From a gamma proteobacterium SCGC AB-629-P17 (GTDB lineage Bacteria > Pseudomonadota > Gammaproteobacteria > PS1 > Pseudothioglobaceae): 44,155 bases of DNA. Under the pieces are notes generated by a model. That model was not told where the DNA came from. It worked only from the letters and a program-made list of their open reading frames with translations, and made no database searches. The translations under genes and the position numbers were made by a program. Below are positions 39,854 through 44,077 of this stretch, piece by piece. The stretch spans positions 43,530-87,684 of the forward strand of contig KB889780.1 of assembly GCA_000372785.1 (NCBI GenBank), written 5' to 3'. Numbering within the stretch: position 1 is the first letter of the stretch; each line of letters begins with the position of its first letter.

Positions 39854-40495
39854 ATGGAACAGTATCAAAACGATTTTGTAGACTTTATGTTGGAAATCGG
39901 AGCCCTTAAGTTTGGAGAATTTACACTTAAATCCGGTCGGGTGAGCCCTTATTTTTTCAATGCAGGTCAATTTAATCAAGGCAACCATTTATCCCAGCTC
40001 GGACAATTTTATGCTCAAGCCATCGAGTCCAGCGGCATCAAATTTGATGTTCTATTTGGCCCCGCATATAAAGGAATTCCGCTCGCAGCAGCAACAGCTA
40101 TTGCGCTCAATGACAGTTTCAATAGAAGTGTTCCCTATAGTTTTAATCGAAAAGAAGCCAAGGACCATGGTGAAGGTGGGAACATCGTCGGTCATCCGCT
40201 TGAGAGGGACATTCTAATCATAGACGATGTCATAACCGCTGGAACAGCGATCAGAGAAGCAAAAGACATTATCGAAGCCAATGGCGCCAACACGAAAGGC
40301 GTGGTGGTTGCATTGGACCGACAAGAGAAGGGCGAAGGCGAACTCTCAGCTATTCAAGAGGTGGAACAAAATTTTGGTATTGCCGTTGTGAGCATCATTA
40401 ACTTGTCTCATATCGTTGATTACCTGAAAGCCAATGATGATAAAAATATCATCAGTAGGATTGAGAGTTACCGTTCCCAGTATGGTATTTCCTAA
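39854..40495 (+). CDS. pyrE: Orotate phosphoribosyltransferase
   Basis: Pyrimidine synthesis enzyme turning orotate and PRPP into orotidine 5'-phosphate. 213 residues, as in E. coli. PRPP-binding motif [42 protein letters not shown] contains the mobile catalytic loop. The start ATG is 31 nt from the divergent xthA start. No leader attenuator was seen in the short intergenic region. Confidence 0.98.
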
Positions 40496-40504
40496 TTAAA
40501 TCGA

Positions 40505-40951
40505 TTAGCGGGTTTCTGTAAGGGGTTCAACGATAAGTGTCGAAGAGTCGGTATCAATGATTCGAACTTTTTGTCCAACACTCATTTCACAGCCCTTTGC
40601 AAACCACAAAGACTCACCCAGCCTAACTTTGACAATGCTGTTTTCAATAGAGACAACTGTGCATTCCTTGCCAATGTGGCTCTTAGCATTAATGCTTAGC
40701 TCATCATCAACCGTTTTCACTGGGAAGTATTTTTTTGCTAATAATGTGGAAACTGCTGAGAGCAATACAAAGCTTAGAACTTGTAATCCAGAGGAAACTC
40801 CAGGGTACAAATAGAACACAATACTGATTGTGATAGCGGATGCACCAATCCAGAGCAGGAACATTGACCACAAGAACAGTTCAACGATGACCAATGCGAG
40901 TCCAAATACAAGCCAATGCAAGTAGTTTAGGTTTTCTAACAACATTTCCAT
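40505..40951 (-). CDS. NfeD-family membrane protein (YbbK-like)
   Basis: 148 residues with two to three N-terminal membrane segments (about 12-30, 33-50, 53-70) and a C-terminal OB-fold domain (about 85-145; SHIGKECTVVSIENSIVKVRLGESLWFA...GQKVRIIDTDSSTLIVEP). NfeD proteins normally work beside an SPFH/band-7 stomatin-like partner (QmcA) in membrane quality control, typically encoded next door. No such gene is in this window; the neighbour on the upstream side is the divergent oxygenase cassette. The ATG at 40949-40951 was chosen; a second ATG two codons later is possible. Confidence 0.85.
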   Translation of the reverse strand: MEMLLENLNYLHWLVFGLALVIVELFLWSMFLLWIGASAITISIVFYLYPGVSSGLQVLSFVLLSAVSTLLAKKYFPVKTVDDELSINAKSHIGKECTVVSIENSIVKVRLGESLWFAKGCEMSVGQKVRIIDTDSSTLIVEPLTETR

Positions 40952-41066: not shown

Positions 41067-41951
41067 ATGGAAAATGGAAAACCTATAAAAAATAAAAAAC
41101 TGGTTGAAAAGTTTCAAAAGGACGGCTTTGTCGTTCTTGAAAATGCGTTAACTGATTCTCAATTGTCGGCACTCAATAGTGACTTATCAATGTGGGTTGA
41201 AGAGAGCAGAGGAAATGAAAAGTCTTACGGAAAAATCATGGATGGGAGGCCTCGTTTTGATTTGCAACTAGATAACCATTCATTTGATAACCCTGCACTT
41301 AGAAGAGTAACTTCGCCAGCTGAAATTTCACAGGCATGTCTCGATGTGGTCAAGGATAATAAAACTCTAGATCTTATTAGTGAAATTTTTGGACCAAATA
41401 TCAAGCATTGGACAAATAAAATCAACCTTAAGCTTCCAGGCTCAGGCACGGAGGTGAAGTTCCATCAGGATTTCCCTTATGAACCCCATTCAAATGAAGA
41501 CATCATGACAGTTTTATTTTTCCTTGATGACGTGACACTTGAAAACGGGCCTTTAGAAGTAGTTGCGGGTACACACAACGGACCACTTTATTCGCTATGG
41601 CATGACGGCATTTTTACAGGCGCCGTTTCTGCAGAAATTGAAGCCGAATGTAAAATGAAGGCTATCAGTTGTATAGGCAAGGCGGGTTCGGCATGTTTGA
41701 TGCATTCCAAATTAATGCATGGCTCCAAATCAAACAAAACTAAATCCGCGCGTTCTCTGTTCATAGTTTCTTATACAGCGGAAGACGCAGTCAATCTCGC
41801 TGACAACCCGCTTCCAAGTGAATTAGATGGAATGATTGTTCGAGGCAAGAAAACGGGTATCGTTCGTTCTACTAGCTATAGTGTCGAATTGCCGGAATAT
41901 CCCCAAGAGGTATCGTTCTTCGACCAGCAATCCAAAATGAAAGATATTTGA
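41067..41951 (+). CDS. PhyH-family Fe(II)/2-oxoglutarate dioxygenase (PhnY-like candidate)
   Basis: 294-residue dioxygenase of the phytanoyl-CoA hydroxylase superfamily. The iron triad is His133-x-Asp135 (KFHQDFPYEP) and His218 (LMHGSKSN); Arg229 (ARSLFIVSY), 11 residues on, should bind the 2-oxoglutarate carboxylate. It opens with the typical KFQKDGFVVLENALT. PhnY, which hydroxylates 2-aminoethylphosphonate at C1, belongs to this superfamily, and a PhnZ-like gene lies two genes downstream. That makes a phosphonate hydroxylase the best guess, but PhyH proteins are diverse (ectoine and other hydroxylases), so the substrate is open. It is the first of a tightly spaced group; a gap of 30 nt separates it from the next gene. 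Confidence 0.8.
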   Translation: MENGKPIKNKKLVEKFQKDGFVVLENALTDSQLSALNSDLSMWVEESRGNEKSYGKIMDGRPRFDLQLDNHSFDNPALRRVTSPAEISQACLDVVKDNKTLDLISEIFGPNIKHWTNKINLKLPGSGTEVKFHQDFPYEPHSNEDIMTVLFFLDDVTLENGPLEVVAGTHNGPLYSLWHDGIFTGAVSAEIEAECKMKAISCIGKAGSACLMHSKLMHGSKSNKTKSARSLFIVSYTAEDAVNLADNPLPSELDGMIVRGKKTGIVRSTSYSVELPEYPQEVSFFDQQSKMKDI

Positions 41952-41981
41952 TTATCATTCGTACTTTGTTAGGATATTGCC

Positions 41982-43133
41982 ATGTCACAGAAAAAAGAGC
42001 TCATAATAAAATTCTCTATTGCTGATGATGAGTTAGTCATTGAGTGGCATGACGGCAAGGAGAGTCGACTATATAGTCACTGGTTGCGCGACCACTGCCA
42101 AATGCCAACATCTCTAAATGCCGATAATGGACAGCGCCTGTTCAGTGTCGTCGATATACCCAAAGAAACCTACATCGAAAAAGCCTATAAGGACGAAAAA
42201 GGAAATATCTGTGTGCGCTTCCAGCCAGAAAACCATTTGTCTGTTTTTTCACAGAGCTGGTTAAGAAAGAATTGTTATGACCTTAATCTTCACTTCGATG
42301 ACAGAAGTGAAAAACAAAAACACTTATGGCAAAAAGACAGTTTCAAGGCTGGTTTACCGTTCATTAAATACGAGTCCATGTGTAATGACGAGAGTATTAA
42401 GCTGGATGCGCTGCGTTTGGTTAGAGATGTCGGTTTTTTTGTTCTTAAAAATGTTCCAACTATCGAGGGTCAAGTTTTAAAAGTTATTAGCGAGTTGGGC
42501 TACACTCGAGAGACAAATTATGGCGCCATCTTTGAAGTGAGGACTGAGGTCAACCCGAATAACCTTGCCTATACCAATATGGGTCTTGGATCTCATACCG
42601 ACAACCCCTACAGAGACCCGGTACCAACAGTACAACTCTTGCATTGCCTGGAAAGTTCGACGGAGGGTGGAGACTCAGTGCTGGTAGATGGTTTTAAAGG
42701 TGCCACTGTCCTACGTCAAGAAAGCGAAGAAGATTTTGCTGTCTTAACAAGCACCTGGATTAATTTTAGGTTTACTGATGCATCAACTGATCTTCGCTCT
42801 AGAGTGCCAATGATAGAACTAAATGGCAACAGTGAAATTGTCAAAGTGAGGTACAACAATCGCTCGATCGACACAATAAAATTGCCTGAAAATAAAATTA
42901 GGCCTTTTTATAAAGCCTATCGACATTGGAGTGAAATTATTGAAAGAGAAGATTTGAAAATTACATTTAAGCTCTCAGAGGGTGATTTAATGCTATTTGA
43001 CAACACCCGCATAATGCATGCGAGAACAGAATTTTCTAAAAAAGGCAAGCGCCATTTACAGGGCGCCTATACAGACCTAGATGGTCTTTACAGTCTACTC
43101 AATGTTTTGGAGAATCGACAACAAAATGGATAG
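41982..43133 (+). CDS. tmpA: TmpA-like (gamma-butyrobetaine-hydroxylase-type) Fe(II)/2-oxoglutarate dioxygenase
   Basis: 383 residues: an N-terminal DUF971-like domain (about 5-105) and a TauD/GBBH catalytic domain. Iron ligands His205-x-Asp207 (GSHTDNPYRDPVP) and His346 (IMHARTEF); Arg357 for 2-oxoglutarate. TmpA, formerly annotated as gamma-butyrobetaine hydroxylase, hydroxylates 2-(trimethylammonio)ethylphosphonate before TmpB cleaves it. Of the residues corresponding to the trimethylammonium cage of human BBOX1, Tyr180 and Tyr197 are kept, while Trp is replaced by Phe184 and a Tyr by Asn208. The CxC..C zinc cluster of BBOX1 is reduced to Cys39. It overlaps the next gene by 8 nt. A true carnitine-pathway enzyme is the alternative, but the partner gene argues for phosphonate. 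Confidence 0.75.
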   Translation: MSQKKELIIKFSIADDELVIEWHDGKESRLYSHWLRDHCQMPTSLNADNGQRLFSVVDIPKETYIEKAYKDEKGNICVRFQPENHLSVFSQSWLRKNCYDLNLHFDDRSEKQKHLWQKDSFKAGLPFIKYESMCNDESIKLDALRLVRDVGFFVLKNVPTIEGQVLKVISELGYTRETNYGAIFEVRTEVNPNNLAYTNMGLGSHTDNPYRDPVPTVQLLHCLESSTEGGDSVLVDGFKGATVLRQESEEDFAVLTSTWINFRFTDASTDLRSRVPMIELNGNSEIVKVRYNNRSIDTIKLPENKIRPFYKAYRHWSEIIEREDLKITFKLSEGDLMLFDNTRIMHARTEFSKKGKRHLQGAYTDLDGLYSLLNVLENRQQNG

Positions 43134-43689
43134 GATTGGTGTTGACAGCATTGTAGATCATATCGAAGATGTGTTTAGACGTCGTGGTGCTGAGTCATAC
43201 TTAGGCGAGCAGGTTACAATGGCCCAACATATGCTTCAAACAGCGCAATGCGCTGAACAAGCTGGTGCTAATAATAGTCAAATAGTTGCAGCCTTGCTGC
43301 ACGATATCGGCCATTACAAAAATGAAATCCCTGAAACATCATTGGCCAAGGGTGTTGACAATTTTCATGAGGAGGCGGGCGCTAATTTTTTGGAAGATTA
43401 CTTTCCACTTTCTGTTGTTGAGCCTATTCGTCAGCACGTTGCTGCAAAACGATATCTATGTGCAGTTAACTCAGATTATTTCGAGCGCCTTTCGCCAGCC
43501 TCTGTTCACACCCTTAACCTTCAAGGTGGGCCAATGAATACAGAAGAAGTAGAAGAATTTGAAAAAAATGATTACTTAGTGCAATGTATACAATTGCGCT
43601 ATTGTGATGAAGATGGTAAAGACCCAGAAAGGAAACATCCTCCATTTTCCTATTATCGCCCGTTGATTGAATCTCTAGTAAAACGTTGA
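43126..43689 (+). CDS. tmpB: PhnZ/TmpB-type HD-domain mixed-valent di-iron oxygenase
   Basis: 187 residues using ATG at 43126, which overlaps the upstream stop by 8 nt; the frame is open further upstream but that part lies inside the previous gene. HD ligands His35, His59-Asp60, His81, His104 and Asp161 agree in order and spacing with PhnZ (34, 58-59, 80, 104, 161), and the hallmark Tyr25 and Glu28 (SYLGEQ) of the C-P cleaving group are present, as are HVAAKRYL (Lys108) and LQGGPM. PhnZ and TmpB oxidatively cleave a 1-hydroxyphosphonate to phosphate and a carboxylate (glycine or glycine betaine). So this is not an ordinary phosphohydrolase. The adjacent TmpA-like gene favours TmpB; choice between the two substrate types is inference. 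Confidence 0.85.
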   Translation: MDRIGVDSIVDHIEDVFRRRGAESYLGEQVTMAQHMLQTAQCAEQAGANNSQIVAALLHDIGHYKNEIPETSLAKGVDNFHEEAGANFLEDYFPLSVVEPIRQHVAAKRYLCAVNSDYFERLSPASVHTLNLQGGPMNTEEVEEFEKNDYLVQCIQLRYCDEDGKDPERKHPPFSYYRPLIESLVKR

Positions 43690-43714: not shown

Positions 43715-44077
43715 ATGATTGAAGAATTAATTTTCCCCGCCGGTTGTCGACTTTTTCACCGATGGCAAGAGGGCGACCCGCAAGCCTCAAGTCGGTTAAA
43801 GGAAATATTTGATAAAACCATTGCTGGTGATTATGACGAGATCTTTGCGCTTAAACATTCCCCAAGCTCTGTTCAGGCTTCTGCTTCGATAAATTTATTT
43901 GTATTGGCTGTTTTGACAAGGCTTTACGGTCTTAATTCTGCAGAAGCTTATAAGGGAGATGCGAAACGTTACGTTCGGGTTTCACTTATGATTCGTAAGT
44001 TGCTTGGACTACCAAAGCTATATCTCGAGTGGCCGGTGTATGCATTTACTGCTGAAGCTCTTGGAGCTATAACTTGA
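43715..44077 (+). CDS. Unrecognised protein, C-terminus lost at chimeric junction
   Basis: I do not recognise this protein. The ATG at 43715 follows the HD gene by 25 nt, with no clear Shine-Dalgarno. About 115 native residues remain (MIEELIFPAG...), with a Cys at 11, a mid-part helix rich in small residues (SVQASASINLFVLAVL), and a conserved-looking end (GDAKRYVRVSLMIRKLLG, LEWPVYAFTAEALG). From nt 44061 the sequence is the inverted copy of the secF flank, so the last residues (GAIT) and the TGA at 44075-44077 are not native. The complete gene is likely longer. Its place right after the oxygenases suggests a role in the same process, such as uptake, regulation or methyl transfer, but nothing in the sequence shows which. 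Confidence 0.6.
   Translation: MIEELIFPAGCRLFHRWQEGDPQASSRLKEIFDKTIAGDYDEIFALKHSPSSVQASASINLFVLAVLTRLYGLNSAEAYKGDAKRYVRVSLMIRKLLGLPKLYLEWPVYAFTAEALGAIT

What the first reader, a model, noticed from the sequence alone, without database searches (positions are those of the whole stretch)
41067..43689. Three-oxygenase cassette that probably degrades organophosphonates
A PhyH-type dioxygenase, a TmpA-like dioxygenase and a PhnZ/TmpB-type HD di-iron oxygenase lie in a row, 30 nt apart and then overlapping by 8 nt. The HD protein has all PhnZ iron ligands at nearly identical spacing plus the diagnostic Tyr25/Glu28. Known systems pair one hydroxylase with one HD enzyme: PhnY (PhyH family) with PhnZ for 2-aminoethylphosphonate, TmpA (GBBH family) with TmpB for its trimethyl analogue. 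Here both hydroxylase types share one C-P cleaving enzyme. Either the cassette handles two substrates, or the PhyH enzyme has a different, undescribed step (for example demethylation or a first oxidation). Standard automatic annotation would miss this, calling the genes phytanoyl-CoA dioxygenase, gamma-butyrobetaine hydroxylase and HD hydrolase.
Basis: partly seen in the sequence, partly recalled or inferred. Interest (0 to 1): 0.85.

Follow-up and report, generated by a model that had tools for sequence, protein, structure and literature searches.

The report
Marine betaine-phosphonate degradation gene pair
A marine SUP05-group bacterium carries the known two-enzyme pathway that cuts phosphate off the phosphonate analogue of betaine; the third oxygenase beside it is real, but probably does a different job.

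Summary
PhyH (41067-41951), TmpA-like (41982-43133) and HD oxygenase (43126-43689) lie in a row with a 30-nt gap and an 8-nt overlap.

The last two are a TmpA/TmpB pair. The HD protein falls inside the TmpB clade, not with PhnZ, and has the six iron ligands and the Tyr25/Glu28 loop. The TmpA-like protein carries the phosphonate-binding Asn/Asn/Arg set, which the HD-less homologues examined lack. The pair occurs in 23 of 29 genomes of this SUP05-group genus (Pseudothioglobus), fused into one protein in three. In eight it lies 1-3 kb from a dimethylglycine dehydrogenase gene, which fits glycine betaine as product.

PhyH scores far below a PhyH truly paired with an HD gene. Seven relatives elsewhere are not linked to an HD gene; four sit in an ABC-transporter/LysR cluster. 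None of 14 other genomes with a full-scoring TmpB has a close PhyH. Within the genus PhyH is usually adjacent (20 of 22), but can be unlinked or missing.

New member of a known kind, with a fused variant and one unexplained neighbour.

The parts
41067..41951 (+). PhyH-family Fe(II)/2-oxoglutarate dioxygenase, 294 aa, metal motif H133-Q-D135...H218, candidate 2OG arginine R229; substrate unknown, probably not TMAEP
   Evidence: PF05721 7e-26; invariant residues; dN/dS 0.09-0.12; far from the PhnY-type model
41982..43133 (+). TmpA: 2-trimethylaminoethylphosphonate hydroxylase (TauD/GBBH fold), 383 aa, with the Asn/Asn/Arg phosphonate set
   Evidence: over TmpA cut-off; 6npb TmpA 316 bits, GBBH 187; triad; tree
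43126..43689 (+). TmpB: HD-domain di-iron oxygenase cleaving the C-P bond, 187 aa (start at 43126; alternative start 43081)
   Evidence: 6npa TmpB 195 bits, PhnZ 109; tree, TmpB clade 95/86; ligand positions
43715..44077 (+). 5' part (120 aa) of a UROD-superfamily-like protein; whole copies of about 432 aa follow tmpB in six relatives; here the frame stops 78 nt before the contig end
   Evidence: (NF004889 E=4e-4); no Pfam match
39854..40951 (.). Context: pyrE (+) and an nfeD-like gene (-) upstream, the usual site of the cassette in the genus

Best explanation
41982-43133 and 43126-43689 encode a TmpA/TmpB module for 2-trimethylaminoethylphosphonate (TMAEP), the phosphonate analogue of betaine. 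TmpA (Fe(II), 2-oxoglutarate, O2) hydroxylates carbon 1. TmpB (mixed-valent di-iron) then oxidatively cleaves the C-P bond, giving phosphate and glycine betaine. In several relatives the betaine could pass to a nearby homocysteine-methyltransferase-like protein and a dimethylglycine dehydrogenase, so the module would supply P plus C, N and methyl groups. Shown here: homology, ligand and specificity residues, clade membership, pairing and fusion of the two genes, and the neighbour genes. Inferred: the substrate and the chemistry. The PhyH gene is most likely a separate small-molecule hydroxylase that became a fixed neighbour in this genus; co-transcription is possible.
For: HD best PDB match is 6npa TmpB, 195 bits, against 109 for PhnZ. 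In a 49-row HD tree the window groups with TmpA-adjacent proteins and 6npa (95/86); PhnZ lies outside. TmpA best match is 6npb, 316 bits, against GBBH 187. In the TmpA tree the window is in a clade of HD-adjacent rows with 6npb (98/98) and the GBBH-like rows are outside. Asn187/Asn-or-Ala287/Arg288 occurs in 44 of 44 rows (33 HD-adjacent, 11 genus orthologues whose HD lies beyond the short flank) and in 0 of 12 HD-less homologue rows; each set contains one gene twice (residue roles from PMC9296572 passages). 14 of 14 over-cut-off TmpB loci have TmpA next to them. A TmpA-TmpB fusion ORF occurs in 3 of the 23 genus genomes with TmpB. A dimethylglycine dehydrogenase (504 bits to 4p9s for the G008 copy) lies 1.1-3.3 kb from TmpB in 8 of 29 genomes, with a homocysteine-methyltransferase-like gene beside it in several.
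Against: No assay. The HD protein is under the curated TmpB and Phn-HD cut-offs. TmpA scores higher on the GBBH model, though HD-adjacent TmpAs of other genomes also pass that model. One HD-adjacent pair, L115 of G050, falls outside both clades on a long branch. No phosphonate transporter was found beside the genes: PF12974 passes its cut-off in 9 of 29 genus genomes, always on another contig than TmpB. Pho-box-like matches are at chance level. The genus has many matches to the dimethylglycine dehydrogenase query, 6 to 24 per genome with partial ones included, so that neighbour is only moderate evidence. Mono- or dimethyl-AEP cannot be excluded as substrate.
Confidence: 0.8

Rival explanations
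1. One reading: PhyH is a second phosphonate hydroxylase (for AEP or its mono/dimethyl forms) that feeds the same HD enzyme, so the cassette handles two substrates.
For: PhyH is directly upstream with a 30-nt gap; linked in 20 of 22 genus genomes that have both genes; all three genes under similar purifying selection.
Against: 33 bits on the PhnY-type model against 207 for an HD-paired PhyH. In the 7 other genomes with a relative at 38-52%, PhyH and HD are not linked; 0 of 14 other full-scoring TmpB genomes has one at 38% or more. TmpAB occurs without the orthologue (G043, L072/G455) or unlinked (G001, G019); a gene is inserted between PhyH and TmpA in G014 and G023. The genus synteny is shared by pyrE, trmB and others, so it counts as few events.
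Confidence: 0.13
2. PhyH acts on the same pathway at another step, for example N-demethylating TMAEP, dimethyl-AEP or the glycine betaine product, or oxidising a later intermediate.
For: Stable adjacency in the genus; relatives have N-methyl metabolism genes near the cassette and elsewhere. 2OG oxygenases can N-demethylate (general knowledge).
Against: Same decoupling as above. Of the 7 relatives outside the genus, 4 lie in an ABC-transporter/LysR cluster (one copy, G208, searched protein by protein) with no N-methyl enzyme recognised, and the neighbours searched in 2 others (G296, G050) suggest no pathway.
Confidence: 0.15
3. The TauD-type protein is a true gamma-butyrobetaine hydroxylase for carnitine and the HD neighbour is incidental.
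For: Highest NCBIfam score is TIGR02409 gamma-butyrobetaine dioxygenase, 512 bits.
Against: TIGR02409 also gives 513-523 bits on four HD-adjacent TmpAs of other genomes. Arg288 and both Asn are present, whereas the three over-cut-off HD-less proteins have Ser-Asn-Phe. The two genes are fused in three relatives.
Confidence: 0.05

Closest known systems
TmpA/TmpB of Leisingera caerulea (TMAEP to glycine betaine and phosphate; PDB 6npb, 6npa)
   Same: Same two protein families, same iron ligands, YxxE loop and phosphonate triad; same clades; described as a two-gene operon (PMC10574752, passages)
   Different: HD below the curated TmpB cut-off; a PhyH gene upstream in most genus members; no LysR gene among the direct neighbours, whereas one is nearby at all three alphaproteobacterial plasmid loci that I opened
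PhnY*/PhnZ (2-aminoethylphosphonate; methylphosphonate in Gimesia)
   Same: HD enzyme of the same superfamily, and a PhyH gene in the same row
   Different: HD lies in the TmpB clade, not with PhnZ; PhyH is far from the PhnY-type model
PhoF, fungal PhnY-PhnZ fusion (PMC10574752, passages)
   Same: Hydroxylase and HD oxygenase in one polypeptide, as in G001, G019 and G043 of this genus
   Different: Here the fused hydroxylase is TmpA-type; fused only in 3 relatives, not in the window
Actinobacterial plasmid clusters (Dietzia pI, Rhodococcus NJ-530)
   Same: Two 2OG oxygenases beside one HD enzyme, one of them PhyH (27% identical to the window's)
   Different: Second oxygenase is DIOX_N-type (Dietzia), PhyH overlaps HD directly, a YaaH-family transporter and a PF01717 MetE-like protein are present; the latter shows no BLASTP similarity to the UROD-like protein

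Membership tests
TmpB (HD-domain phosphonate oxygenase) | H...HD...H...H...D iron ligands | tested here: met
   H35, H59, D60, H81, H104, D161
TmpB (HD-domain phosphonate oxygenase) | YxxE loop (Y30/E33 in TmpB) | tested here: met
   Y25/E28
TmpB (HD-domain phosphonate oxygenase) | Groups with TmpB, not PhnZ, in a tree | tested here: met
   95/86 clade with 6npa and TmpA-adjacent rows; PhnZ outside
TmpB (HD-domain phosphonate oxygenase) | Score over the curated NCBIfam NF049941 cut-off | tested here: not met
   258 bits against 300; a calling threshold rather than a mechanistic feature
TmpB (HD-domain phosphonate oxygenase) | Releases phosphate from (R)-1-hydroxy-TMAEP | not testable with these tools
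   needs an assay
TmpA | Score over NCBIfam NF049936 cut-off | tested here: met
   424.5 against 400
TmpA | Asn187, Asn287, Arg288 phosphonate ligands | tested here: met
   N-N-R at the aligned columns; roles from PMC9296572
TmpA | Gene paired with tmpB | tested here: met
   8-nt overlap in the window; fusion in three relatives
TmpA | Hydroxylates TMAEP | not testable with these tools
   needs an assay
PhnY/PhnY* (PhyH-type phosphonate hydroxylase), for 41067-41951 | Score on the PhnY-type model NF052437 | tested here: not met
   33 bits against a cut-off of 500; the HD-paired PhyH of G418 gets 207, also under the cut-off
PhnY/PhnY* (PhyH-type phosphonate hydroxylase), for 41067-41951 | Relatives genomically linked to an HD oxygenase | tested here: not met
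   0 of 7 sampled genomes outside the genus with a 38-52% relative; within the genus linked in 20 of 22
PhyH superfamily, for 41067-41951 | PF05721 match with HxD...H metal motif | tested here: met
   7e-26; H133-Q-D135, H218, R229 invariant in 26 aligned relatives
gamma-butyrobetaine hydroxylase | No Arg at the TmpA Arg288 column (Ala in human GBBH, Phe in the three over-cut-off HD-less proteins) and no TmpB partner | tested here: not met
   Arg present and TmpB adjacent

The most novel reading that the evidence does not exclude
In this genus the PhyH oxygenase, and in some members the UROD-like protein, add an undescribed branch to TMAEP use: PhyH makes or prepares a further N-methylated aminophosphonate (for example by demethylation or a first oxidation) for TmpB, and the UROD-like protein moves methyl groups from the betaine product.
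Probability: 0.15. Interest if true: 0.7.

Novelty: new member of a known kind. Interest (0 to 1): 0.42.

Why it matters
If TmpAB works here, a genus of marine SUP05-group bacteria would turn the betaine analogue TMAEP into phosphate and glycine betaine, linking phosphonate and methylamine cycling. No title or abstract start in the search listings joins this group to TMAEP; the papers in the listings were not opened, and the original TmpA/TmpB paper did not come up. The TmpA-TmpB fusion is a useful enzyme for study, and the steady PhyH neighbour is a well-defined orphan to assay.

Tried and rejected
Structure of PhyH from 12 genus sequences: mean pLDDT 32.5, unusable. Structure of the UROD-like protein from 5 sequences: mean pLDDT 44.7, not used for fold search. 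PDB searches with the UROD-like protein gave no relevant hit. The profile of PhyH relatives matches EctD (97 bits), leucine hydroxylase (91) and phytanoyl-CoA dioxygenase (84) about equally, so no substrate could be read from it. The PhyH tree puts the HD-linked G418 PhyH far outside, but on a very long branch, so I lean on the model scores instead. The idea that the UROD-like protein matches the MetE-like gene of the actinobacterial clusters failed: no BLASTP similarity. Promoter, terminator and Pho-box scans are near chance. No viral contig matched the TmpA patterns; 1 of 50,697 phage records holds an HD match at 44%. A strong PF12974 hit in the window's own assembly (G000:C18) was set aside: that contig holds a TrmB-like protein (read, not searched) although the window already has trmB, and the assembly is 5.4% contaminated, so it may be foreign. 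In one search, 11 genus rows show HD absent only because their fetched flank is short; I counted them apart. In one search I dropped 14 near-duplicate rows, 6 near-duplicate PhyH rows. In the maps overlapping ORFs were filtered, which hid PhyH itself at G425 and G058; linkage there rests on the coordinates. One search failed on a grouping error and was repeated.
Full report
Observation. PhyH (41067-41951) is followed after 30 nt by a TauD/GBBH-type dioxygenase (41982-43133), which overlaps the HD protein (43126-43689) by 8 nt. Pfam gives PhyH, TauD plus GBBH-like_N, and HD. dN/dS against three close relatives is 0.09-0.12 for each gene; a fourth, more distant comparison was saturated. The window is the end of contig C24 of a 1.42-Mb assembly, 77% complete and 5.4% contaminated. 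The same gene row recurs in many relatives, so it is not contamination. Record titles of relatives name Candidatus Thioglobus and Candidatus Pseudothioglobus, two with the family Pseudothioglobaceae. I call the genus Pseudothioglobus on that basis; the SUP05-group label is recalled.

The HD protein is TmpB-like. phmmer against solved structures gives TmpB 6npa 195 bits and PhnZ 109 bits. The ligands are H35, H59-D60, H81, H104 and D161, with the YxxE loop Y25/E28 (loop described in PMC8177086, passages). In a tree of 49 HD proteins the window lies in a clade of 32 rows that holds 6npa and otherwise only TmpA-adjacent rows (95/86). PhnZ 4mlm and the HD of G418 lie outside. One TmpA-adjacent row (L115, G050) falls outside that clade on a long branch. 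NCBIfam scores are 258 for TmpB (cut-off 300) and 196 for Phn-HD (cut-off 214.6), so curated cut-offs miss it.

The TauD-type protein is TmpA-like. It matches TmpA 6npb at 316 bits and human GBBH at 187. It passes the TmpA cut-off but scores higher on the gamma-butyrobetaine model. That model also gives 513-523 bits on four HD-adjacent TmpAs of other genomes, so it does not separate the two. The residues do. TmpA binds the phosphonate with N187, N287 and R288, while human BBOX uses two Asn (PMC9296572, passages). At the aligned columns all 44 TmpA rows (33 seen next to an HD gene, 11 genus orthologues with short flanks) have N187 and R288; position 287 is Asn in 41 and Ala in 3. None of 12 HD-less homologue rows has the set: they show S-N-F (3), N-N-W (2), D-P-R (5) or V-D-R (2), so Arg alone is not diagnostic. 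One gene stands twice in each set (L101/L183; L062/L083). In the tree the window is in a clade of HD-adjacent rows with 6npb (98/98); the L115 row again falls outside.

The pair is the functional unit. In the genus a TmpA orthologue (69% or more) is in 23 of 29 genomes (24 of 29 have any match) and TmpB in 23 of 29, partial at contig ends in some. In G001, G019 and G043 the two are one ORF of 569-587 aa. In a sample of 397 phylum genomes 14 exceed the TmpB cut-off, and all 14 have TmpA beside it. L072 lies in an assembly that, by identical hits, is G455 of another genus of the family. There TmpA is 84% and TmpB 87% identical to the window's, while folC is 55%, trmB 59%, xth 72%, fxsA 74% and pyrE 82%. 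That suggests exchange of the pair between lineages. A pirin-family gene stands there where PhyH stands in the window, and G455 has only a 38% PhyH elsewhere.

Product side. In G008, G021, G041, G004, G003, G040, G014 and G002 (8 of 29) an orthologous 811-aa protein is encoded 1.1-3.3 kb from tmpB. The G008 copy matches mammalian dimethylglycine dehydrogenase at 504 bits. Beside it is a homocysteine S-methyltransferase-like protein with weak similarity to BHMT (64 bits; G008 copy). That gene is found by clustering in five genomes, and a gene of the same size stands at the same place in G041, G021 and G020. Betaine to dimethylglycine to sarcosine would use such enzymes. This is moderate evidence only: each genome has 6 to 24 matches to that query, partial ones included, and in G006, G001, G019 and G022 the orthologue is elsewhere.

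PhyH. Its orthologue (68% or more) is in 24 of 29 genomes. Of 22 genomes with both PhyH and TmpA, 20 have them linked and 2 (G001, G019) do not. In G005 and G012 PhyH sits at a contig end. G043 has TmpAB and no orthologue. G009, G013, G016 and G022 have neither; they are 54-89% complete. Among the linked ones, G014 has a HalD-like oxygenase gene and G023 a 324-aa gene (not searched) between PhyH and TmpA. In G001, G019 and G043 the pyrE-nfeD interval, the usual site, holds neither gene. Outside the genus, 7 of the 396 other genomes of the phylum sample have a PhyH at 38-52% identity. Two of these have an HD gene of this kind (G050, with TmpA beside it; G058, without); in neither is it linked to PhyH. 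Four (G208, G371, G323, G425; 45-47%) share ABC-transporter- and LysR-type neighbours. The G208 copy, searched gene by gene, also has a solute-binding protein, a class II aldolase, a flavin oxidoreductase, RidA, DUF1028 and an M20 deacetylase; the other three share parts of this by clustering. The two closest in identity after the genus, G050 (52%) and G296 (47%), are not in such a cluster. The 38% relative in G455 has DUF1028-, RidA- and M20-type neighbours by clustering, with HpaB- and GlcD-like genes. None of the 14 over-cut-off TmpB genomes has a PhyH at 38% or more; the best is 32% in G354. The PhnY-type model gives 33 bits, against 207 bits for G418, where a PhyH gene is 1 nt from an HD gene. 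So PhyH is a real, conserved enzyme but not a PhnY by these tests. The most economical view is a separate hydroxylase, perhaps of a nitrogen-containing small molecule. It is not proven.

Transport. PF12974 (phosphonate-binding) passes its cut-off in 9 of 29 genus genomes, always on another contig than TmpB. Two G008 copies pass the broad phosphate/phosphite/phosphonate model but not the PhnD cut-off. How TMAEP would enter is open.

Other sources. On plasmids, 28 of 72,556 records have an HD match; the seven best (49-53%) are alphaproteobacterial by name. Three were opened (Labrenzia, Aliiroseovarius, Phyllobacterium): TmpA is annotated as TauD/TfdA dioxygenase or gamma-butyrobetaine dioxygenase, a LysR gene is nearby and no PhyH is annotated within 4.5-6 kb. 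PhyH on plasmids reaches 29% at best in the 25 of 44 records listed. PhyH-paired HD genes appear in Dietzia and Rhodococcus, with a MetE-like protein, a second 2OG oxygenase and a YaaH transporter. So two 2OG oxygenases beside one HD enzyme is not unique to the window.

Fourth gene. 43715-44077 is the first 120 aa of a 432-aa protein that follows tmpB in G017, G021, G001, G019, G043 and L072. It has no Pfam match and one weak NCBIfam match to methylcobalamin:coenzyme M methyltransferase (E=4e-4). In the phylum sample it is found in 1 of 397 genomes, the window's own. In the window the frame stops 78 nt before the contig end; whether that is real or an assembly fault cannot be told.

Literature. 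TmpA/TmpB, PhnY*/PhnZ, the Gimesia pair and PhoF are the four oxidative versions known to the review PMC10574752 (passages). PMC9381506 was searched for terms: SUP05, Thioglobaceae and TMAEP do not occur in its main text. Searches for Thioglobus or SUP05 with phosphonate and for Thioglobus singularis with betaine were seen as listings only (in one search, 15 of 16 papers); none of those papers was opened. The library holds open-licence papers only.

Verdict. A TmpA/TmpB pathway in a marine genus where my limited searches showed no report: new member of a known kind, with a fused variant. The claimed three-oxygenase phosphonate cassette is not supported as such.

Noticed in passing
window 43715-44077: Truncated UROD-superfamily-like gene directly after tmpB; whole 432-aa copies follow tmpB in six relatives, with no Pfam match; seen only in this genus and G455 in my searches.
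   Followed up: partly
L081:8625-10376, L083:8464-10173, L084:8929-10692: TmpA and TmpB fused in one ORF in G019, G001 and G043.
   Followed up: yes
L264:209-4558 and L266:2211-6573: Dietzia and Rhodococcus plasmids share a five-gene row: MetE-like, second 2OG oxygenase, YaaH-family transporter, PhyH, HD oxygenase; looks like an uncharacterised oxidative phosphonate cluster.
   Followed up: partly
L196:5816-14971, L195:2122-11157, L193:3154-10647, L194:2600-11605: Gammaproteobacterial cluster around four PhyH relatives: ABC transporter and LysR in all four, with varying class II aldolase, flavin oxidoreductase, RidA, DUF1028 and M20 deacetylase; substrate unknown.
   Followed up: partly
L089:10356-13719: Dimethylglycine dehydrogenase and homocysteine-methyltransferase-like genes 1-3 kb from tmpB in several relatives.
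   Followed up: yes
L088:9330-10118: In G014 a HalD-like 2OG oxygenase gene is inserted between PhyH and TmpA, giving three 2OG oxygenases beside one HD enzyme.
   Followed up: no
L081:2937-4043: A distant TmpA/GBBH paralogue (31%) with D-P-R at the ligand columns lies beside dadA-, alr- and ridA-like genes (names by reading, not searched) near the fused TmpAB.
   Followed up: partly
L254 (G000:C18): Contig of the window's assembly with a PF12974 phosphonate-binding protein and a TrmB-like protein (read, not searched) although the window has trmB; possibly contamination.
   Followed up: partly
L257:4751-8739: In G019 the dimethylglycine dehydrogenase orthologue sits next to an MttB-family methyltransferase, a possible betaine demethylation pair.
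   Followed up: no
L072:4037-4768, L191:7799-8719: A pirin-family gene takes PhyH's place beside tmpA in L072, and another pirin-family gene stands beside the PhyH relative of G296.
   Followed up: no
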